This document shows positions 16,505 to 27,110 of a DNA stretch of 64,000 bases, piece by piece. This DNA comes from Burkholderiales bacterium (lineage in GTDB: Bacteria > Pseudomonadota > Gammaproteobacteria > Burkholderiales > Burkholderiaceae_C). The stretch's first letter is position 1, and each line of letters opens with the position of its first letter. The notes beneath the pieces are model-generated. The model worked only from the letters and a program-made list of their open reading frames with translations. It ran no database searches and was not told the origin of the DNA. The stretch spans positions 1 to 64,000 of the forward strand of contig JAFKGE010000019.1 of the NCBI GenBank assembly GCA_017307865.1, in the 5' to 3' direction. The position numbers and the translations under genes are program-made.

Positions 16505-17329
16505 ATGACTGAAGCTTTGAATGAACCGGCGCGCGGCGCCGATGTGTGGCGCGTCGGCGACGTCGTCCTGAGCAGCCGCTTCCTCCTCGGCACCGCCGGC
16601 TACCCTTCGCCCCAGGTGCTGGCCGACGCCATCGCCGCGTCGGGCACGCAGATCGTCACCGTGGGGCTCAAGCGCCAGCTGGCCACGGGCGCGGACAACG
16701 GCTTCGTCGACATCATTCGCGCCGCCCTGCGCACACAGGGCGCGCGCCTGCTGCCCAACACCGCCGGCTGCACCACGGCGCGCGAGGCGGTGCAGTTGGC
16801 CCACATGGCGCGCGAGCTGTACGACACGCCCTGGGTCAAGCTGGAGGTGGTGGGCGACGACTACACGCTGCAGCCCGACCCGCTGGAGCTGGTCGAGGCC
16901 GCGCGGCAACTGGCGCGTGACGGTTTCACCGTGTTCCCCTACTGCACCGACGACCTCGTCACCTGCAAGCGCCTGCTCGACGCCGGCTGCCCGCTGCTGA
17001 TGCCCTGGGGCGCGCCCATCGGCTCGGGCCAGGGCCTCATCAACCCTTTTGCGCTGCGCCTGCTGCGCGAGCGCCTGCCGGGCGTGGTGCTGATCGTCGA
17101 CGCCGGCATCGGCGCGCCCAGCCACGCGGCGCAGGCGCTGGAGATGGGTTATGACGCGGTGCTGCTCAACAGCGCCGTCAGCCAGTCGCCCGAGCCGGTG
17201 CGCATGGCGGGCGCCTTCAGGCAGGCCATCGAGGCCGGGCGCGCCGCGTATCGGGCCGGCGTGATGGCGCGGCAGGACTTTGCCGTCGCCAGCACGCCGG
17301 TGACGGGCAACCCGCTGCTGATCGAATGA
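16505..17329 (+). CDS. thiG: Thiazole synthase
   Basis: ThiG joins deoxyxylulose phosphate, the ThiS thiocarboxylate and iminoglycine into the thiazole phosphate. The 274-residue TIM barrel shows LGTAGYPSPQVL, VGLKRQ, the Schiff-base lysine Lys113 in WVKLEVVGDD, and phosphate-binding LMPWGAPIGSGQG and DAGIGAPSHAA. I prefer the ATG at 16505; a GTG at 16493 overlaps the stop of the preceding gene and would add four residues. Neither has a strong Shine-Dalgarno. The stop overlaps the next gene (ATGA at 17326). Confidence 0.95.
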   Translation: MTEALNEPARGADVWRVGDVVLSSRFLLGTAGYPSPQVLADAIAASGTQIVTVGLKRQLATGADNGFVDIIRAALRTQGARLLPNTAGCTTAREAVQLAHMARELYDTPWVKLEVVGDDYTLQPDPLELVEAARQLARDGFTVFPYCTDDLVTCKRLLDAGCPLLMPWGAPIGSGQGLINPFALRLLRERLPGVVLIVDAGIGAPSHAAQALEMGYDAVLLNSAVSQSPEPVRMAGAFRQAIEAGRAAYRAGVMARQDFAVASTPVTGNPLLIE

Positions 17330-19068
17330 GCGCCGTGCCCTGGCCCATCGTGTGGAGCATCGCCGGCAACGACAGCGGCGGCGGCGCGGGCTTGTCGGCC
17401 GATGCGCGCGCAGCTGAGGCCTTCGGCGCGCACCTGTGCCCGGTGGTGGCGGCCGTCACGGCGCAGAACTCGCGCGCGGTGACGCGCATCGCGCCGGCCC
17501 CCCCCGATCTGCTCGATGCCCAGCTGGCCGCGCTGGCCGACGACATGCCGCCGGCGGCCATCAAGACGGGGCTTTTGGGCAGCGCCGAGAACGTGGCCGT
17601 GGTGGCGCGCTGGGTGGACCGGCTGCGTGCGCGCGGGCCCGTGGCTCTGGTGATTGACCCGGTGCTGGGTTCGACAACGGGCGCAGCCTTTGCGGGTGAT
17701 GCGGTGTTGCGGGCGTATCGCGATTTGCTGCTGCCGCGCGCGACGCTGGTGACGCCCAATGAGCGGGAGGCGCGATGGCTGGTGGGGGATGTGGGGGAGG
17801 GCGATGCGCCGCTGCCCCTCACCCCAGCCCTCTCCCCAGAGGGGCGAGGGAGGAATACCGGCGCGGCTGTTTTGCCCCCTCTCCCCTCTGGGGAGAGGGC
17901 TGGGGTGAGGGGCGCGGCGGATCAAGAACCGGCCGAGTCAACCATTCCCCTGCTCGCCCAAGCCGTGCGCGACCAAGGCGCGCAAGCCGTCGCCATCACC
18001 GGCGGCGACAGCGCGCACGCGCCCGACCGCTCGCTGGACTGGATCGACACCCCGCACGCGCGCGGCTGGCTGGCGCTGCCGCGCATCGATACGGCACACA
18101 CCCACGGCACAGGCTGTACCTTCGCCACCAGCGCCGCCTGCGCGCTGGCGCTGGGCTTTGTCGCGGCCGACGCGCTGGTGCTGGCCAAGATGGCGGCCAC
18201 GCACGCCATCGCGCACGGCCACGCGGCCGGGCAGGGCGCGGGACCGGTGGCGGCGCGCGCCGGTTTTGCCACGCAGCCCGAGCGGATGCCGTGCCTGTCC
18301 TGGGATGAAAACTACAATTTCGATAGCTGTCTGCGCTTGGTGGATGCGGGCCAGAGCCCGATTTCGTCTAAAGATGCGGACCTCGGCGTGTACGCCATCG
18401 TCGATGCGTCCGAGCGCGTGCGCGCCGTGGTGCAGGCCGGCGTGCGCACGGTGCAGCTGCGCATCAAGACCCCGCCGCGGCCGGACGCCGAATGGCACGC
18501 TGCGCTGCGCGCCGCCATCGCGCAGTCGCTGGCTGCCTGTCGCGCGGCGGGCGCCACCTTGGTCGTCAACGACCACTGGCGCCTGGCGGCTGAACTGGCG
18601 GCGGGCGACAGGGCCCACGTGGCCGTGCACCTGGGGCAGGAAGACCTGCTGGCACTGGGCGCATCGGGCCGCGCCGAGCTGGCCGCCAGCGGCCTGCGTC
18701 TGGGCATCAGCAGCCACAGCCTGTGGGAGCTGGCGCGCGCGCGCGCCCTGGCGCCCTGGTACGTGGCCTGCGGCCCGGTGTGGCCCACGCTGACCAAGGC
18801 CATGCCCTGGCGGCCGCAGGGGCTGGACAACCTGGCCTGGTGGGTGCGCATGGCGGGCGTGCCGGTGGCGGCCATCGGCGGCATCCTGGAGCCGGCGCAG
18901 GCCGCGCAGGCGGCGGCCAGCGGCGCGGCCGGCGTGTGCGTGGTGCGCGGCCTGGGGGCCGAGCCCGCGCGCAGCGTGCCGACGTGGCAGGCGGCCCTGA
19001 CCCAGGGGCGCGCCGGCCAGCGCCTGCCGGTGCCCGCGCTGCCGCATCCGTCGCTCCTCGATTCATAG
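17326..19068 (+). CDS. ThiD-like kinase fused to thiamine-phosphate synthase ThiE
   Basis: The 580-residue protein has two enzyme domains. Residues about 1-320 form a ribokinase-fold HMP/HMP-P kinase (SIAGNDSGGGAGLSADARA, AAIKTGLLG, LVIDPVLGSTTG, and the anion-hole HGTGCTF). Residues about 350-575 form a ThiE barrel (QLRIKTPP, LVVNDHW, VAVHLGQEDL, CGPVWPTLTK, AAIGGILEP) that couples HMP-PP to thiazole phosphate. Both domains keep their expected active-site motifs. Two repeats are embedded in frame: a 24-bp-armed inverted repeat gives about 33 extra residues in a ThiD loop (17815-17912), and a GCGCTTG repeat encodes the linker between the domains (18309-18368). A separate thiD follows. Confidence 0.93.
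   Translation: MSAVPWPIVWSIAGNDSGGGAGLSADARAAEAFGAHLCPVVAAVTAQNSRAVTRIAPAPPDLLDAQLAALADDMPPAAIKTGLLGSAENVAVVARWVDRLRARGPVALVIDPVLGSTTGAAFAGDAVLRAYRDLLLPRATLVTPNEREARWLVGDVGEGDAPLPLTPALSPEGRGRNTGAAVLPPLPSGERAGVRGAADQEPAESTIPLLAQAVRDQGAQAVAITGGDSAHAPDRSLDWIDTPHARGWLALPRIDTAHTHGTGCTFATSAACALALGFVAADALVLAKMAATHAIAHGHAAGQGAGPVAARAGFATQPERMPCLSWDENYNFDSCLRLVDAGQSPISSKDADLGVYAIVDASERVRAVVQAGVRTVQLRIKTPPRPDAEWHAALRAAIAQSLAACRAAGATLVVNDHWRLAAELAAGDRAHVAVHLGQEDLLALGASGRAELAASGLRLGISSHSLWELARARALAPWYVACGPVWPTLTKAMPWRPQGLDNLAWWVRMAGVPVAAIGGILEPAQAAQAAASGAAGVCVVRGLGAEPARSVPTWQAALTQGRAGQRLPVPALPHPSLLDS
17815..17912. repeat. Inverted repeat with perfect 24-bp arms inside the ThiD domain
   Basis: The left arm (17815-17838, starting CCCCTCACCCCAGCCCTCTC) is exactly complementary to the right arm (17889-17912), with a 50-base centre. 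The encoded peptide includes LTPALSPEGRG and LPSGERAGVRG, a sequence pair known from a widespread proteobacterial repeat. The frame stays open across it. It falls in the loop between the LLG region and the next strand of the kinase fold. Confidence 0.9.
18309..18368. repeat. Dispersed GATAGCTG-GCGCTTG repeat forming the ThiD-ThiE linker
   Basis: The sequence CGATAGCTGTCTGCGCTTGG followed by a GGGCCAGAGCCCGATTT tail matches the copies at 19061 and 37753. It occupies the codons between the kinase domain and the synthase domain (residues about 328-347), so it appears to have helped create, or fill, the join. Confidence 0.75.
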
Positions 19069-20187: not shown

Positions 20188-21078
20188 ATGGCCACGCAAT
20201 CTCCCGCACGTCCGAGCCCGATCGAGTTCGCGCCACAGTCGGTGCGCGCGGTGTGGATCGACCTGCGCTGCCAGTGCGGCGCACGCAGCCTGTGGCATGA
20301 GGCCGCAGCCCGGGGCGAGTGGTTGCGCATCAGTCGGCCGGCCGACGCGAGCGGCGCCATCGCGCGCCAGCGGGCGCAGTTCACCTGCCTCGAATTCGAC
20401 TACCCGGACCGCAGTCGCCTGGCCGTCGTTCCGCTGCTGCGGCGCGAACATCCGGCGCTGCCGCTGCTGATGTTCACCGAATACCACACGGAGGCGCTGG
20501 CGGTGTGGGCTTTTCGCTCGCGCGTCTGGGACTATCGCGTCAAGCCCGTCGCCGCCGCCACACTGGCGCGGCTGATCGAGGCGGCGAGCCTCGCGGTTCG
20601 CCGCGCCGTGCCGCTGGAAGGGTGGCTCGCGTCGGCGCTGCCGGCTCATCTGTTGGCCCCGGTCGGGCACCTCATGCTGCCGCCGACGGCGGCCCCGCGC
20701 ACGTCGGTTGCCGTGGCCTGGGTCGGCGAGCACTACGCCGAACCGTGCCCGCTCCAGGCTGTCGCCGAGCTGTGCCACCTGTCCGAATCCGAGTTCAGCC
20801 GTGCCTTCCATCGTGAGCAGGGCACCTCGTATCGGCGCTTTTTGCTGCACTACCGCATCGGCAAGGCGCGCGAGTTTCTGGCCGAGCCGCGGGCTTCGGT
20901 GTCGCAGGTCGCCTACGCAGTCGGCTTCAACGACCTGTCGCAGTTCGGGCGCATGTTCCGGCGCATCGTCGGCCTGCCGGCCTCGTGCTTCCAGCAGCAG
21001 GTGGAAGCGCGCGCAGGCGTGCCGGTGCCTGTATCCGGGCGCGCAGAATCCTTCCATTCAAGCGCAGATCGCTGCTAA
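20188..21078 (+). CDS. Receiver-like/AraC-family transcription regulator
   Basis: The 296-residue protein has an N-terminal receiver-like domain (residues about 10-135). A candidate phospho-Asp lies in CLEFDYPD, the conserved Thr in MFTEY and the conserved Lys in RVKPV. The C-terminal AraC DNA-binding domain (about 165-275) has two helix-turn-helices, the first with LCHLSESEFSRAFHREQG and the second with VSQVAYAVGFNDLSQFGRMF. I chose the ATG at 20188 after AGAAAGAAG; an ATG at 20122 is also in frame. No histidine kinase is nearby. It heads a same-strand group of genes of unknown function and is the likely regulator of them. Confidence 0.8.
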   Translation: MATQSPARPSPIEFAPQSVRAVWIDLRCQCGARSLWHEAAARGEWLRISRPADASGAIARQRAQFTCLEFDYPDRSRLAVVPLLRREHPALPLLMFTEYHTEALAVWAFRSRVWDYRVKPVAAATLARLIEAASLAVRRAVPLEGWLASALPAHLLAPVGHLMLPPTAAPRTSVAVAWVGEHYAEPCPLQAVAELCHLSESEFSRAFHREQGTSYRRFLLHYRIGKAREFLAEPRASVSQVAYAVGFNDLSQFGRMFRRIVGLPASCFQQQVEARAGVPVPVSGRAESFHSSADRC

Positions 21079-21171
21079 CGCAGCGCGCCGGCGCAGCGGC
21101 AAGCTGACGGCTCCGATTCACGTGCGCGGCCCATCGCGCGATCGATGGCAAGCGCACCCGAGGAGCCCAGC

Positions 21172-23523
21172 ATGACCAAGATCGTCGGCGAATTGGATCT
21201 GAGCCAGATCCCCGAGACGGAATACAAGCCCGAACTGGAACTGCGCGTGGCCGTGGTGCGCGAGGATGGCATCCTCGACTCGACCGTCGTCAAGCCGGCC
21301 GGCGCCAAGCAGCGGCGCCTGCCCTTCGAGGTCGAGTTCACGCCGCCTGTGCTGCCCGGCGCACACCGGCCGTGCCCCGTGGTGCTGCTGGCCGGCCCCA
21401 ACCTGAGCGATCGCGAATTTCTGGCGCTGGATACCGTCCGCCATGTGGTGGACTTGGGCGCCCCGGCCGAGCGCGCGTCGACCCGAGCGGCGTCCACCGC
21501 CGCGGCGCAATTGAAGATCGGCCCGATCGAGGTCGAAGCGTCCATCTACCGTTGCTGGATCCTCTGCTGTCGCACCTTCACCATCAACGGCCGCATCGTC
21601 TGTCGCCATTGGCAATACGACCCCAGGCGCCATCGCTGGACCCATTGCGACGAGCCCGTGCCCGGCGCCGTGATCGAGGCTTGGGACGTCGACCGCTTCT
21701 GGTGGTGGTACTGGCGCGACGAGATCGTCAGCGCCACCAGCGATATCAACGGCAACTTCCACATGACGTTCCGCTGGTGCTGCCTGCGCTGGCGCCCGTG
21801 GCTGCGGCCCAACCCGGCGATCGACCCGGAAATCTTGGCGCGCATCCAGCACTTGCTGGCCGCAGCGCAACTGCCGCTGCCGACAATCCCGCCCGGCCCC
21901 GATCCGGACCCGGTGGTATTCCAGCGCCTGCTGGGCGGCGCGGCCAACCTGCCGGGGCCGGTGCTGGCGGCGGCCACCACGCACGGCGCGGCGAGCTTGC
22001 CCGCCTTGCAGCAGCCGGCTGCCACGCTGTCGGCGCAAGCCCTGCGCGCCATGTTGCCGGCCTCGGCCGAGCTGGCGGCGCTGCGCGTGTGGCCGTGGTG
22101 GGACTGGGATGACTGCGCGCCGGATGTGGTGTTCCGTGCCACGCAGCGCTGCGACGGGCGCGTCAGCGTGATCTACGAGGAGTCGAACGCGCAGACGCGC
22201 TGGGACATCCCGACCACGCTGAACGTCACCCTGATTGCCAACGACCTGGCCTGCTGCCTGCCGAGCTGCCGCGACCCGGAATGTCCCGAATGTCTGAAGC
22301 TCACCCAAGTCGGCTGTACGCCCGTCAATTTGATCAGTGCCAACGCCGGCCCGCCCGATCTGCGCGGCTACGCGCGCGTCGCGGCAGCTGATGCCGATCC
22401 GTGGAAGGACAACCCGTTCTGTGACGCGCTGCGCGTTCGCGGTGGGGTGGGATGGGACGTGGACTACTTCAAGGTGCAGTACTCGAAGGACGGTGCGCCG
22501 TGGGCCGATTTGCCGGTGGCGGCGTTTGCCGGCTACTCGCGCCGCTACTGGGACGGCAGCGTCTTCTCGCCCGGCATCGACTTCTCGCCGAAGAACCACA
22601 GCGGCCAGACGGTGATCATGACCCGCCGCCACTACGAACAGCTCAATCCCAGCGTCCCGCGCTTCGGCGGCCAGGTGGTGTGGGACGACTACGACTCGCT
22701 GTTCACCTTCGACACCACGCAGCCGGGCCTGGCGCCGGACGGGCTGTACGAATTGCGCTTTGTCGGCTGGGCGGCCGACGCCGCCGACAAGCTGATCGCG
22801 ACCAGCGAGCGCATTTTGCCCACCTGCGGCCAGGACACGGCCGAGCGCGTGTTCCTGCGCATCGACAACCAGGCGCGCGTGCATCCGGGTCCGTCGCTGC
22901 TGGCGCCGTGCAAGATTCCGCACGGGCTGGAATGCAACCCCGTGACCTTGTCCTGCGGCCTGATCCACCATTACACGGTCGAGCCCGACTGCTACATCCG
23001 CGAGATCTGGAAGAACGAGGGCCAGCCCGGCCAGGCTTGCGTTTCGGCCTGCGACATCGTGCGCCTGGAACCCACCGACACGCTGACCATTCACTTCAGC
23101 GTGACCTGCCCGCCCACCGTCCAGGATGGGCACTTGGGCGGCTACTGGCTGCGCGCGGAATACGGCGCCAGTCAGGCCTTCTACATCGTCGACTCCGGCG
23201 GCAGCATCGGCACGCTCGCGGGTGATCCAACGCCTGAGTTTGGCCCCGGCTACAGCCAGGCGCTGGCGCAGGGCGCGCTGCGCCCGCACTGGAATGGCGG
23301 TGACTTCAAGGTCACGCTGCACGGTTCGGACTTTCCGCTGTGCTGCGCCTATCTGCTGCGCCTGTGGGCCTGGAAGCGCACCACGAGTGGCTGCTCCGAT
23401 CCGACGGTGACGCATTTCAACCAGTTCGAGCTGACCTTCACGGTGCTGCGTCCGGAGCTGTGCGGCGAGTTGTGCCCGCCGACGCGGGATCCTGCGGAGG
23501 GCGATGGAGGCAAGCCAAGATGA
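21172..23523 (+). CDS. Large cysteine-rich protein of unknown function
   Basis: The 783-residue product begins MTKIVGELDLSQIPETEYKP, with GAGGAG seven bases before the ATG. There is no signal peptide or membrane segment. I count about 30 cysteines, many in pairs or clusters (CWILCC, WCCLRW, ACCLPSCRDPECPEC, LCGELCPP). Residues about 155-205 (PGAVIEAWDVDRFWWWYW, then SATSDINGNFHMTF) look like a transthyretin/carboxypeptidase-regulatory beta-sandwich. The rest is rich in Trp, Pro and predicted strands and may be several more beta domains. I do not recognise the family. A metal-binding or intermolecular cross-linked structural protein is possible but not shown. Confidence 0.75.
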   Translation: MTKIVGELDLSQIPETEYKPELELRVAVVREDGILDSTVVKPAGAKQRRLPFEVEFTPPVLPGAHRPCPVVLLAGPNLSDREFLALDTVRHVVDLGAPAERASTRAASTAAAQLKIGPIEVEASIYRCWILCCRTFTINGRIVCRHWQYDPRRHRWTHCDEPVPGAVIEAWDVDRFWWWYWRDEIVSATSDINGNFHMTFRWCCLRWRPWLRPNPAIDPEILARIQHLLAAAQLPLPTIPPGPDPDPVVFQRLLGGAANLPGPVLAAATTHGAASLPALQQPAATLSAQALRAMLPASAELAALRVWPWWDWDDCAPDVVFRATQRCDGRVSVIYEESNAQTRWDIPTTLNVTLIANDLACCLPSCRDPECPECLKLTQVGCTPVNLISANAGPPDLRGYARVAAADADPWKDNPFCDALRVRGGVGWDVDYFKVQYSKDGAPWADLPVAAFAGYSRRYWDGSVFSPGIDFSPKNHSGQTVIMTRRHYEQLNPSVPRFGGQVVWDDYDSLFTFDTTQPGLAPDGLYELRFVGWAADAADKLIATSERILPTCGQDTAERVFLRIDNQARVHPGPSLLAPCKIPHGLECNPVTLSCGLIHHYTVEPDCYIREIWKNEGQPGQACVSACDIVRLEPTDTLTIHFSVTCPPTVQDGHLGGYWLRAEYGASQAFYIVDSGGSIGTLAGDPTPEFGPGYSQALAQGALRPHWNGGDFKVTLHGSDFPLCCAYLLRLWAWKRTTSGCSDPTVTHFNQFELTFTVLRPELCGELCPPTRDPAEGDGGKPR

Positions 23524-23550
23524 CGCGCGAAGCATGGCGCGAGCAGCACG

Positions 23551-23940
23551 ATGCAGGTGTCGACGGCCGTGAACGCGCTGAACCCTTGGTTGGCGTTTGC
23601 GCTGGCAGCGCTGGCGACTTGGCGCGTCACGCACCTGCTGGCCGAGGAGGACGGCCCGGGGGGGTTGGTTCTGCAGTTGCGCATGCGGCTGGGGGCCGGC
23701 AAGCTGGGGGCCTTGATGGATTGCTTTCAGTGCCTGTCGCTGTGGATCGCCATGCCGTTTGCCTTTGCCCTCGCGCATTCGGTGGCGGGATGGATCTTGG
23801 CTTGGTTGGCGCTGTCGGGCGCGGCCTGCCTGTTCGAGCGCATCGGCGCGGCGCACCCGCCGTGGCCGGGCGAGCCCTTGCATTTCCCGGAGAACAACCA
23901 TGAGCTGTTGCGGTCAAGGACGAATGGCCCTGAAAGCTAG
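23551..23940 (+). CDS. DUF1360-like small membrane protein
   Basis: This is a 129-residue protein with two or three hydrophobic segments. The pattern WRVTHLLAEEDGPGG, then CFQCLSLWIA, resembles DUF1360 membrane proteins (Thr-His-Leu-Leu, Glu-Asp-Gly-Pro, and CxxC-x-S-[LV]-W). The CxxC would face the membrane interface. It starts 27 bases after the large Cys-rich gene and overlaps the next small gene, so it is probably co-expressed. The function of the family is unknown; some members occur in phages. Confidence 0.7.
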   Translation: MQVSTAVNALNPWLAFALAALATWRVTHLLAEEDGPGGLVLQLRMRLGAGKLGALMDCFQCLSLWIAMPFAFALAHSVAGWILAWLALSGAACLFERIGAAHPPWPGEPLHFPENNHELLRSRTNGPES

Positions 23941-24175
23941 TCAAGCGGCAACCACGTCGGCCCCGCCACGAACATGGCTCGGCGCTCAGGTGCGTGCAAC
24001 CCCGCCGCCCGGCGTGGGCGTTCCGCTGCGCTATCTGGGTGTCGCCCCCGTCGTGGTGCGCGGCGCCGTCACCGGTGCGGCCTACTCGTTTGCCGGTGGT
24101 CGCGGCACTCAGACCGTGGATGCGCGCGATGTGCCCGGTTTGTTGAAGAAGGGTGTTTTCCGCAGTGGCGGTTGA
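23900..24175 (+). CDS. Small protein MSCCGQ-, unknown function
   Basis: This is a 91-residue protein whose ATG (23900) overlaps the end of the DUF1360-like gene. It begins MSCCGQGRMALKASQ, continues with a Pro/Ala/Thr-rich linker, then a compact domain RYLGVAPVVVRGAVTGAAYS and VDARDVPGLLKKGVFRS. I recall small proteins with this CCGQ head and the 'RGxVTGxxYxF ... VDxRDxxxLL' tail from phage-related gene sets, where their role is also unclear. AGAACAACC precedes the start; a stronger ribosome site (AAGGAG) follows it for the next gene. Confidence 0.65.
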   Translation: MSCCGQGRMALKASQAATTSAPPRTWLGAQVRATPPPGVGVPLRYLGVAPVVVRGAVTGAAYSFAGGRGTQTVDARDVPGLLKKGVFRSGG

Positions 24176-24186
24176 AGGAGAAAGTC

Positions 24187-24684
24187 ATGAGCACGAAACT
24201 GGACGATCCCAAAAAATTGGCCGAACTCAAGAAACAACTCGAGGCGTTGGCGGGGCATGAAATTGATGCCAGCCCGCAGCAAATCATCAGGTTCCGCTAT
24301 CCGGTCAGTTCGAGCACTTCCGCCGATGGCAGCACGACGTGGCGCAACATTTTCTTCCCAGGCAAGAGTTGCAGCGACGCGAACCTGCTGGACGTGGATG
24401 GTGCCGGTTGGACGGGGTCCAATGGCCAGCAGACCTTTTTGTTGAGCGACGTCCTGTGCTGGTCGAGCTTCATCTTTGCCTACCCAGCCAACGTGGTGGC
24501 CACGGCACGCGGCGCCAGCCCGTTCATCCTGACCACCGACTACCACACGGTCGGCCCCGCGCCGGGCACGTTGAATACCGACCTGCAGATCACCGTGTAT
24601 GCGTGGCAGCCGGGCGGGGCTCCCGCGCCGGGCGTCTCGTTCGACTGGCGCTGCCGTGTGGTCTCGGTGCCGATCATCTTCTGA
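24187..24684 (+). CDS. 165-residue beta-rich protein, unknown function
   Basis: AAGGAGAAAGTC precedes the ATG at 24187. The first 30 residues are a charged helix (LDDPKKLAELKKQLEALAG), and the rest is predicted beta-strand with NIFFPGKSC, WTGSNGQQTF and a C-terminal LQITVYAWQPGG-containing sheet. There is no signal peptide. I do not recognise the family; a single jelly-roll-like or lectin-like domain with an N-terminal helix is the simplest guess. It is tightly spaced within the same-strand cluster. Confidence 0.7.
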   Translation: MSTKLDDPKKLAELKKQLEALAGHEIDASPQQIIRFRYPVSSSTSADGSTTWRNIFFPGKSCSDANLLDVDGAGWTGSNGQQTFLLSDVLCWSSFIFAYPANVVATARGASPFILTTDYHTVGPAPGTLNTDLQITVYAWQPGGAPAPGVSFDWRCRVVSVPIIF

Positions 24685-24772
24685 TGTCCGAGGCGTGGGT
24701 CGGCGCGCCGGCATCGCGGCGAGCCGCACCCGCTCCAGCCTGTTTCATTCGTCTTCCGACAGGAGGCTCATC

Positions 24773-26077
24773 ATGGCCACGCCCGCCGACTCTGCCAATC
24801 CCACGGTTGCCTGCTGTCCGGCGCTCGCGCCCGATGGCGTGTGCGACGAGTTGGACTTTTTCTATCGCCTGACCTCTTGGACCACGGTGGTCGGCCGGCC
24901 GGGAACGGTTGCGCCGGCACCGATCCCGGTGGAGGTCAAGCTGCACTTTCATCTCAAGCGCTGCCGCGGGCCGCTGGCGCTGGGCGACCTGCTGTACACC
25001 ACCACGCTGCTGCCCGGCGAGAAGGTGCGGCTGTTCACCTCGGACCGGCGCAGCAAGTTCACCTTCGACAGTGAAAGCAAGTTCGGCTATCGCAATTCAC
25101 AGTCGTCGGAAGAGTCCTTTTTCATGCAGCAGATGAGCGACTCGCTGTTCGACGTCAACTCGCGCGACACGGCGCATTCGAGCAACCAGTCCCATTCGCA
25201 CGTGGACGGCAAGGCCGACGCCGGGGTGAACATCTTCGGTCTGGGCGGCTCGGCCAGCATGAGCGGCAACTTCGATGCCAACTCCGTGTCGGATTTTCTC
25301 GGTGAGCACAGTGCCCACGCGCACTCGTCCGCGCGCGCCGCCGAAATGGGCGTGCGCAAGGCCTCCAGCGTGTCGATCGGCGAGGCGCAAAGCCGTACCC
25401 ACACCGAAAGCGAATCGCAGGACCACTACGAGTCGGCCTCGCGCGAGTTTCAAAACGGCAACGACTGCCACGCCCTCACGTTCTATTTCTACCAGATCAA
25501 CAAGACGCAGACCATCAGCTACACGCTGGAATCGGTCGACCTGCGTGCCATGATGGATACGGACCCGGCCAGCGACTTCACGCGCGTCGCCGCCAACCCG
25601 CTGGAGCCGAGCACCGGCGTGGGGGTGCTGTCCAACAGTGTGCTGTCGACCGACGCCAACCGCCGCTCGACCTACCTGGAGGCGGCCACCAGCGTCGCCG
25701 GCAGCGATCGCCTGGCCGCGGGCGTTGCCCTGCGCCAGCAGATTCCCGTGCTGGCCGCCGCCGTGCGGGCGCAGGCGCTCAAGCAGGTGCAGGGCGACTT
25801 GGTCAAGGCGGGGTTGCTTGATGTGGGCGGCAAGGTGTCGGCCGACGCGCAGCAGCGCTACTCGTTCACGCGTCAGTCCTCACTGCCCACGCCCGGCGTG
25901 CTGGTCAAGGGGTGCCTGGACGAATGCAACGTGTGCGAGTCCACACGCCTGCAGTCGATCGAACTTGACATCGAGCGCAAGCAATTGGAAAACGCCTTGC
26001 TGCAAAAGCAAATCACCTTGCTGGAGCAGTCACAGGAGTATCGCTGCTGCCCGCCGGCGCCCCTGATCGAGTCCTGA
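24773..26077 (+). CDS. 434-residue protein with Ser/His-rich centre and coiled-coil end, unknown function
   Basis: AGGAGG precedes the ATG at 24773. Residues about 20-110 form an ordered domain (CDELDFFYRLTSW, LALGDLLYTTTLLPGEKVRL, FTSDRRSKFTFDSES). Residues about 115-230 are rich in Ser, His, Ala and Glu (SHSHVDGKAD, HSAHAHSSARAAEMG). An ordered block follows with FYFYQINKTQTISYTLESVD. The last 40 residues include CLDECNVCEST and a predicted coiled coil (LDIERKQLENALLQKQITLL). No signal peptide. The composition suggests a fibrous or assembly-forming protein, but this is inference and the family is unknown to me. Confidence 0.75.
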   Translation: MATPADSANPTVACCPALAPDGVCDELDFFYRLTSWTTVVGRPGTVAPAPIPVEVKLHFHLKRCRGPLALGDLLYTTTLLPGEKVRLFTSDRRSKFTFDSESKFGYRNSQSSEESFFMQQMSDSLFDVNSRDTAHSSNQSHSHVDGKADAGVNIFGLGGSASMSGNFDANSVSDFLGEHSAHAHSSARAAEMGVRKASSVSIGEAQSRTHTESESQDHYESASREFQNGNDCHALTFYFYQINKTQTISYTLESVDLRAMMDTDPASDFTRVAANPLEPSTGVGVLSNSVLSTDANRRSTYLEAATSVAGSDRLAAGVALRQQIPVLAAAVRAQALKQVQGDLVKAGLLDVGGKVSADAQQRYSFTRQSSLPTPGVLVKGCLDECNVCESTRLQSIELDIERKQLENALLQKQITLLEQSQEYRCCPPAPLIES

Positions 26078-26189
26078 CGTCCACGCATCGTCGCCCGAGC
26101 TCCCAGTTGGCTGCCGTTGGCGATCCATGGTCTTGGGCGATCGACACGTCGTCGGGCCGCTTCTGTTCTTGCTCGCGAAGGAGTGCGCC

Positions 26190-26936
26190 ATGTCCAACAT
26201 CCACGTTGCCGTGATCAATGCCAGCACCGTATTGAACGCCGATCAGGTCAAGGCGACCTTGCCGGCCCTGCAGACCCAGGTGCACCGCGATTTCGCACCG
26301 GCCTGGGGGGTGGATGCCGACTTGAGCTTTGTCCCCCCTGGCAGCAAGCCGCCGCCCACGGCTTGGTGGCTGACCGTGCTGGACGATTCGGACCAGGCCT
26401 CGGCGTTGGGCTATCACGAGACCACCAACGAAGGGCTGCCGCTGGCGAAAGTGTTCGCACGCACGGCGATGCAGGACGGCGTGAACTGGACCGTGACGGC
26501 CAGTCACGAATTGTTGGAGATGCTGGCCGACCCGGAGATCAACCTGACCGTGTTCGTGCAACCCACGGATACCACCGGAACCTTGTATGCCTACGAAGTG
26601 TGCGACGCCTGCGAGGCAGATCAATACGGGTACGCGATCCAGGGGGTGCACGTATCTGACTTTGTGTATCCGGCCTGGTTCGAGTCGTCGCGGCCGACGG
26701 CGCGCACCCAGTTCGACTTCGGCTCCCATCTGCATGCGCCGCTGCCGCATTTGCTGCCCGGTGGTTACATCGGCGCGTTCGATGTGGGTTCGGGCTCGGG
26801 CTGGCATCAGGTGACTGCCATGCGCGGTCACGCAATCAAGGGCATGCGACATGCCCTTGCGCCCAAGGGAAGCCGCCGCGATCGGCGAGCCATCGGGCGT
26901 GCGCGGTGGTTGACCAGCACCGTTCAGTTCGGTTGA
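26190..26936 (+). CDS. 248-residue protein with a SHELLE motif, unknown function
   Basis: GAAGGAG precedes the ATG at 26190. The protein begins MSNIHVAVINASTVL and has a central TASHELLEMLADPEINL motif, with a Tyr/Cys-rich YAYEVCDACEADQYGYAI segment about 25 residues later and VSDFVYPAWFESS after that. A His-Glu-x-x-Glu helix followed by an acidic/Cys segment could bind a metal, as in metallopeptidases, but it is not the classical HExxH. I recall similar 'SHE-(I/V/L)-LE-(M/L)-(I/L)-(A/V)-DP' proteins annotated only as hypothetical. No export signal; the basic last 30 residues are probably disordered. Confidence 0.7.
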   Translation: MSNIHVAVINASTVLNADQVKATLPALQTQVHRDFAPAWGVDADLSFVPPGSKPPPTAWWLTVLDDSDQASALGYHETTNEGLPLAKVFARTAMQDGVNWTVTASHELLEMLADPEINLTVFVQPTDTTGTLYAYEVCDACEADQYGYAIQGVHVSDFVYPAWFESSRPTARTQFDFGSHLHAPLPHLLPGGYIGAFDVGSGSGWHQVTAMRGHAIKGMRHALAPKGSRRDRRAIGRARWLTSTVQFG

Positions 26937-26978
26937 ACGCGCGCGTTTGTGAAGTAACGGAAAGGAAGGCCAGGCAAA

Positions 26979-27110
26979 CTGAAAATCGAAGTCGATGTTG
27001 CTGCAGGCCGGCCCAACCCGGTCTGGGTCATCGCCGACGACACAGAGCGGAAGCAACTCATCAAGGCGATCACCCAAGTGAGCGCGGTGCAGAAAGGACG
27101 GCATCCGTGA
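26979..27110 (+). pseudogene. Remnant of a KIEVDVxxGRPNP-family protein
   Basis: A 43-codon open stretch begins with CTG (26979) after AAAGGAAGG and reads (L)KIEVDVAAGRPNPVWVI, DDTERKQLIKAIT and stops at 27108-27110. It resembles the N-terminus of a family of hypothetical proteins that start 'MKI.VDVFSGRPNP.W'. The usual ATG is CTG here, and everything after about 35 residues is lost, so it is most likely decayed. A functional mini-protein with a CTG start cannot be excluded. It directly follows the SHELLE gene on the same strand. Confidence 0.45.

What the first reader, a model, noticed from the sequence alone, without database searches (positions are those of the whole stretch)
20188..27110. 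Candidate undescribed system: receiver-AraC regulator with six unknown genes
Seven same-strand genes and a remnant form a block between ordinary metabolic genes. Each unknown product has an ordered, distinctive sequence with good ribosome sites, so they are not spurious. Shared traits are many Cys (CxxC in four products), no export signals, one membrane partner with a CxxC, and fibrous or beta-rich predicted folds. I recall relatives of several of them as 'hypothetical' in distant bacteria, which suggests a conserved but undescribed set. Possible roles are a cytoplasmic or cell-surface assembly, a phage-derived particle, or a metal- or redox-dependent defence device; none is proven.
Basis: inference. 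Interest (0 to 1): 0.85.

Follow-up and report, generated by a model that had tools for sequence, protein, structure and literature searches.

The report
Undescribed operon with swappable protease partners
A set of four bacterial genes of unknown function is shared by very distant bacteria, sometimes beside or fused to protein-cutting enzymes of unrelated kinds, which hints at an undescribed cell-damaging, defence or cell-surface device.

Summary
Seven complete same-strand genes and a remnant lie at 20188-27110 between thiD and a deacetylase gene. Four form a conserved core: A (783 aa, Ig-like), B (DUF1360-like membrane protein), C (91 aa) and E (434 aa). A genome scan with E confirmed 95 relatives (80 kept); of 82 loci examined, 29 carry all four genes on one strand within 5 kb, in two orders, and E occurs in ten named phyla. 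Pfam, NCBIfam, PADLOC and PHROGs gave no accepted match for A, C, D, E or F. New here: E is tied to peptidases. Two chains fuse a subtilisin domain to an E domain, and 14 of 82 loci have a gene of a peptidase family (A4, S8, C1, C70, S1, M6, S15, weakly M35) beside the block; the only four A4 genes in 48 of these genomes all follow E. A small random-gene control did not by itself show enrichment (11 of 52 against 2 of 20). F, with an invariant SHExxE motif, holds that slot in the window, and in the window only. Best reading, unproven: a regulated system in which E is a membrane-acting protein switched by an exchangeable peptidase; an exported protease scaffold is nearly as likely. The phage-particle idea found little support.

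The parts
20188..21078 (+). Regulator: AraC-type HTH with a degenerate receiver-like first half
   Evidence: Pfam HTH_18 5.2e-20; Response_reg 0.0014, below cut-off. Homologues (cluster c16) upstream of A or E in L016, L023, L025, L031, L092, L094.
21172..23523 (+). Core gene A, 783 aa: Ig-like beta domains, Pro-rich linker, 30 Cys
   Evidence: No match in four libraries. AF2 model pLDDT 66.5; best PDB match RbmA 5.5e-5, TM 0.10 by query. Homologue in the same locus as E in 43 of 82 loci.
23551..23940 (+). Core gene B, 129 aa: DUF1360-like membrane protein with invariant DC..C motif
   Evidence: DUF1360 20.1 bits against a cut-off of 21; conserved motif; in 31 of 82 loci.
23900..24175 (+). Core gene C, 91 aa, begins MSCCG, overlaps B by 41 bases
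   Evidence: No match above cut-off; homologues in 32 of 82 loci.
24187..24684 (+). Accessory gene D, 165 aa
   Evidence: No family match above cut-off; homologues only in G018 and G214 among all loci held.
24773..26077 (+). Core gene E, 434 aa: long beta strands, inserted helical hairpin, C-terminal helix, conserved Cys
   Evidence: 95 relatives confirmed, 80 kept; alignment A3; AF2 model pLDDT 72.4; E domain in one chain with subtilisin in L019 and L020.
26190..26936 (+). Accessory gene F, 248 aa: metallohydrolase-like by motif, in the slot where relatives carry a peptidase
   Evidence: H76, S105-H106-E107, E110, D114, E136, D139 invariant in 6 sequences; same domain fused to Phosphoesterase (L107) and DUF7379 (L106).
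26979..27110 (+). Remnant frame without start codon (..DVAAGRPNPVW..)
   Evidence: read from the sequence

Best explanation
The block is one copy of a horizontally spread system: core E-A-B-C, a dedicated regulator, and an exchangeable hydrolase, often a peptidase (F here). Shown: the four genes co-occur, and E domains are found beside peptidases or in one chain with them. Inferred: E is a dormant protein whose helical hairpin with a Gly/Ser-rich tip enters or perforates a membrane once the partner peptidase cuts or releases it; A is an Ig-like scaffold or sensor; B and C dock the complex at the inner membrane; the regulator switches the set on under stress. It would work like a bacterial gasdermin system without being one.
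For: Core: of 82 E loci 29 hold E, A, B and C on one strand in 4.1-4.9 kb, 22 as E-A-B-C and 7 as A-B-C-E; with at least 4.5 kb on both sides of E it is 25 of 49. Peptidases: an S8 match over positions 4-288 of 288 (2.7e-39 and 9.7e-39) and an E domain in one chain in two genera. Beside the block on the same strand: A4 in L024, L025, L028, L094; S8 in L031, L065 and, cut by the contig end and seen by homology only, L073; C1 in L093, L098; C70 in L080; Trypsin_2 in L102; M6 in L068; S15 in L096; M35 below cut-off in L091. In 48 of these genomes there are four A4 genes in all, each directly after E. S8: 192 matches in 197.8 Mb (sums), roughly one gene in a thousand. Nine combinations of family and branch fall on separate parts of the E tree or next to it (L094 and L098 were not in the tree). 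Membrane idea: the hairpin tip has 21% Gly and the hairpin 24% Ser (medians) against 5% and 11% overall; tips of L021 and L022 reach hydropathy 1.7; most leading but non-significant fold matches are pore formers. Conflict context: an EAD7-TIR gene follows E in L057; a NACHT-like STAND gene precedes E in L065.
Against: The fold matches are not significant (best E 0.39, TM about 0.1). The median tip hydropathy over 69 E proteins is only 0.48, the window's 0.46, below the most hydrophobic stretch elsewhere in the same protein (1.12). Of 52 automatically chosen adjacent genes 11 are peptidases, against 2 of 20 random flank genes (one-sided Fisher p 0.23); 26 of the 52 were scanned, F included. In 68 of 82 loci I found no peptidase neighbour. 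F lies beside E only in the window. Several Bacteroidota loci keep the set beside the same two housekeeping-like genes, with no peptidase seen. In 24 of 35 genomes with E but no A in the locus, no A was found, and in 7 of 10 other A regions no B or C was found. No cleavage, membrane or killing assay exists.
Confidence: 0.4

Rival explanations
1. Exported protease scaffold: A and E form a Cys-rich assembly that leaves the cell by a non-Sec route helped by B and C and carries or anchors a hydrolase on the surface or into neighbours.
For: A's best fold match is the biofilm scaffold RbmA. Of nine partner peptidases, six (A4, two S8, C1, M35, M6) show no hydrophobic N-terminus, although their families are often secreted (recalled). 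F domains are also fused to Phosphoesterase and DUF7379; long E-domain proteins differ at the C-terminus.
Against: No export route shown; B is not a known holin; the RbmA match is at Ig-fold level (TM 0.10 by query). C70 and S1 partners have a hydrophobic N-terminus (2.65, 1.68), and S15 has a hydrophobic stretch just beyond the 45 residues scanned (by eye).
Confidence: 0.3
2. Cytoplasmic stress or housekeeping assembly: E, A, B and C form a metal- or redox-responsive complex that recruits a peptidase for local protein quality control.
For: Ten Cys of E are invariant or nearly so, CxxC in B, constant chromosomal place in several Bacteroidota.
Against: Rare and patchy: 2 of 398 genomes of the phylum sample, 8 of 321 of the class sample, own genome included; phyla mixed in the tree.
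Confidence: 0.2
3. Phage-derived particle or remnant prophage.
For: A DUF1360-like gene lies between terminase and portal genes in Microbacterium phage A3Wally. One giant-virus protein resembles E in fold and sequence (4.0e-16, 23% identity), though that virus is no phage.
Against: Pattern scans of viral contigs confirmed no relative of E or B; no phage match for C; only weak PHROG matches, for B and E; the small phage gene after portal is unlike C by eye.
Confidence: 0.03

Closest known systems
Bacterial gasdermins with partner proteases (recalled; commentary PMC9079055 seen in a search listing only)
   Same: A gene beside an exchangeable protease; proposed activation by proteolysis and action on membranes
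   Different: No significant sequence or fold match of E to gasdermin; three more conserved core genes; other peptidase families here
Nuclease-protease pairs of Hachiman, AVAST and canu loci (PMC12799240; abstract and start of introduction seen)
   Same: One effector repeatedly paired with different proteases
   Different: The effector there is an MBL-type nuclease; E shows no nuclease match and PADLOC found no defence gene in the window block
Conflict systems with EADs, STAND NTPases and peptidases (PMC7159879, PMC8195603; passages seen)
   Same: An EAD7-TIR and NACHT-like STAND gene beside some E genes; trypsin and subtilisin partners
   Different: I saw EAD or STAND genes at only a few E loci; not all neighbours were scanned
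Polymorphic toxins (PMC3482391; search listing only)
   Same: Long E-domain proteins share a middle part and differ at the C-terminus
   Different: Standalone E has no recognised toxin domain; immunity genes were not looked for
DUF1360 family (PF07098)
   Same: B scores 20.1 bits against a cut-off of 21
   Different: Function unknown; the one listed paper naming it (PMC10551460, listing only) was not read

Membership tests
Bacterial gasdermin | Gasdermin sequence or fold | tested here: not met
   no Pfam match; gasdermin A3 pore at rank 44, E 5.8
Bacterial gasdermin | Protease encoded beside it | tested here: inconclusive
   14 of 82 loci and two fusions; no peptidase found at the other 68
Bacterial gasdermin | Pore after cleavage | not testable with these tools
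   needs a membrane assay
Aerolysin or MACPF pore formers | Significant structural match | tested here: inconclusive
   most leading matches are pore formers but none is significant; model pLDDT 72.4
Known anti-phage defence system | Match to a PADLOC model | tested here: not met
   0 of 7 proteins at E up to 1
Phage or phage-like particle | Homologues in phages with structural genes | tested here: not met
   weak B match only
Peptidase (gene F) | Match to a catalogued peptidase family | tested here: not met
   no Pfam or NCBIfam match; no significant PDB relative
Peptidase (gene F) | Invariant metal-type motif | tested here: met
   SHExxE with H76, D114, E136, D139 invariant in 6 sequences
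DUF1360 (gene B) | Score over the curated cut-off | tested here: inconclusive
   20.1 against 21 bits

The most novel reading that the evidence does not exclude
E founds a new class of protease-gated membrane effectors, spread over ten phyla and with a likely relative in a giant virus, in which both the activating peptidase and the sensing regulator are exchanged around a fixed four-gene core.
Probability: 0.33. Interest if true: 0.88.

Novelty: categorically new. Interest (0 to 1): 0.7.

Why it matters
Core families that no library searched accepts gain a shared context and one handle on function, peptidases. If E is switched by proteolysis, this would be another, independent protease-gated effector system in bacteria, with natural pairs in cultured strains. 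If it is an exported scaffold instead, it would be a new way to display or deliver proteases. Either way DUF1360, a family without known function, gets a testable one.

Tried and rejected
Family libraries gave nothing accepted for A, C, D, E, F. PDB sequence searches gave no convincing relative of E, A, F or B; C's hits are to de novo TIM barrels and repeats with no stretch passing on its own, taken as noise. Phage origin: see rivals. A domain shared by A and the long E proteins: no profile support. A sample of the phylum of L095's genome gave E in 1 of 148, that genome itself. No plasmid match for E. Literature searches (open PMC papers) listed no paper that I recognised as treating these genes; keyword searches cannot exclude one.

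Peptidase enrichment by bulk adjacency was not shown (11 of 52 against 2 of 20); 20 of 30 sampled control genes were scanned. I rest on the fusions and on family-wide counts. For C1, the 2 adjacent genes (L093, L098) stand among 53 match rows in 48 genomes, several rows being pieces of one gene. For S8 the capped listing shows L031's gene; L065's, a Pfam hit, is not in the printed part. One search used probes chosen from adjacent genes, so its 13 of 14 adjacent rows are biased; one of these is an MBL hydrolase, and L052's trypsin-like gene lay 4.4 kb off. S15 also holds enzymes that are not peptidases (recalled).

Full report
What is there. A, C, D, E and F have no accepted match in Pfam, PHROGs, NCBIfam or PADLOC; B falls just under the DUF1360 cut-off; the regulator is AraC-type with a degenerate receiver-like half.

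Co-occurrence. E profiles matched 4 of 41 relatives, 9 of 299 genomes of the family sample, 2 of 398 of the phylum sample and 8 of 321 of the class sample, the own genome included each time; some matches are only the E domain in longer proteins. A scan of genome contigs confirmed 95 relatives and kept 80. I clustered the reading frames of these 80 loci, the window and L016 and labelled A, B, C and E by profile. Of 82 loci 29 hold E, A, B and C; 13 E and A; 1 E, A and C; 2 E, B and C; 37 E alone. Many contigs are short; among the 49 with at least 4.5 kb on each side of E the numbers are 25, 4, 0, 1 and 19. All 29 full sets lie on one strand within 4.1-4.9 kb, 22 as E-A-B-C and 7 as A-B-C-E. In 35 genomes whose E locus showed no A, 11 have an A homologue on another contig (one only at 6.7e-4); three positive controls also rang, making 14 of 38. 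Of ten such A regions read out, three have B and C behind A (L129, L131, L135) and seven show neither, some near contig ends. So the four genes form a set, but a loose one: E often occurs without the others.

History. A tree of 69 of the E proteins mixes ten named phyla; Pseudomonadota alone need at least 11 changes. The window's E groups with L025 and L028 (Rhodanobacteraceae, Lysobacteraceae) at 99/85, with L024 at 100/100, and next with Verrucomicrobiota at 100/99. The A-B-C-E order is kept in L024, L028 and L094. This fits transfer of the block, though bins of mixed origin can imitate it.

The peptidase link. Two long proteins (L019, L020; two genera) carry a subtilisin domain over 4-288 of 288 profile positions followed by an E domain (genome-wide E 4.7e-15 and 5.5e-15 with the first profile; 6.9e-21 and 2.3e-19 in a set of seven proteins). 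A third (L022, 1623 aa) has an E domain and a C-terminal HExxH stretch read by eye, without a Pfam peptidase match. Beside the E/A/B/C block, on the same strand, lie Peptidase_A4 (L024, L025, L028, L094), S8 (L031, L065; L073 a homologue cut by the contig end with no Pfam match of its own), C1 (L093, L098), C70 (L080), Trypsin_2 (L102), M6 (L068), S15 (L096) and, below cut-off, M35 (L091): 14 of 82 loci, nine combinations of family and branch. In L065 and L073 the S8 gene stands 330-450 bases behind A, with a small frame between in L073. In 48 of the genomes there are only four A4 genes, and all four directly follow E. S8 has 192 matches in 197.8 Mb (sums), roughly one gene in a thousand, so about 0.1 would be expected in 96 flanking places against 2 seen; this is rough arithmetic, and only L031's is in the printed listing. 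Against this, 2 of 20 random flank genes were peptidases (M23/M56 and S41) against 11 of 52 adjacent genes, p 0.23. The fusions and the A4 count carry the claim, not bulk adjacency.

Gene F. F begins 112 bases after E, in the slot of the A4 gene of L024, L025, L028 and L094. No other E locus held carries F. Its relatives (6 of 250 genomes of the order, own included) keep H76, S105-H106-E107, E110, D114, E136 and D139; the domain is also fused to Phosphoesterase (3.6e-72) and DUF7379 (2e-40). That F is a metallohydrolase is my inference.

Structure. E is modelled with modest confidence (pLDDT 72.4, 69 rows): long strands 49-79, 233-259 and 365-386, helices 113-131 and 169-197 around an unsure tip, and a C-terminal helix. 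No PDB match is significant; the leading ones are Cry toxins, parasporin and aerolysin. In the viral library the one good match is an uncharacterised 642-aa Yasminevirus protein (4.0e-16, 23% identity, TM 0.39). The hairpin is rich in Gly and Ser but only mildly hydrophobic in most members. A looks like a chain of Ig-like domains (pLDDT 66.5; RbmA 5.5e-5).

Control of expression. The gene upstream varies: AraC-type in the window's clade, L031 and L092; NACHT-like STAND in L065 with relatives in L073, L075 and L033; in L057 a BTAD-NACHT-TPR protein some 1.8 kb upstream; a sigma-54 activator in Rhodanobacter L045, and a relative in L062. This suggests an induced function.

Mechanism. Shown: co-occurrence, and E domains joined to or beside peptidases. 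Inferred: that the peptidase acts on E, that E acts on membranes, that A, B and C hold the complex. I give the whole chain 0.4 and the exported-scaffold rival 0.3. That the core is a real, spreading, undescribed gene set I hold at about 0.9, within the literature searched.

Noticed in passing
window 17326-19068: A ThiD/ThiE-like fusion frame (by eye) contains an in-frame stretch (..LTPALSPEGRG..PLPSGERAGVRG..) that looks like a translated repeat element.
   Followed up: no
window 26979-27110: Remnant frame ..DVAAGRPNPVWVIADDTERKQL..; the GRPNP.W motif recalls small hypothetical proteins elsewhere (recalled, not searched).
   Followed up: no
L063, L064, L066, L067, L070, L071, L084, L087, L097: In these Bacteroidota E-A-B-C lies between the same clusters c8 (L-aspartate-oxidase-like by eye) and c6 (IspG-like by eye), so there it seems inherited in place.
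   Followed up: partly
L057:8137-8796: An EAD7-TIR gene follows E in a Thermoflexales bin.
   Followed up: partly
L099:8726-9682: An AbiEii toxin gene lies directly upstream of E.
   Followed up: no
L109 (phage A3Wally): A DUF1360-like gene sits between terminase and portal genes in a Microbacterium phage; its role there is unknown.
   Followed up: partly
L151, L153, L004, L021, L022: Long E-domain proteins (1042-1623 aa) share a middle part and differ at the C-terminus (DUF3238 below cut-off in L153, HExxH by eye in L022).
   Followed up: partly
L018:9418-11278: A 380-aa E-like protein is followed by a lipoprotein-like gene (signal read by eye).
   Followed up: no
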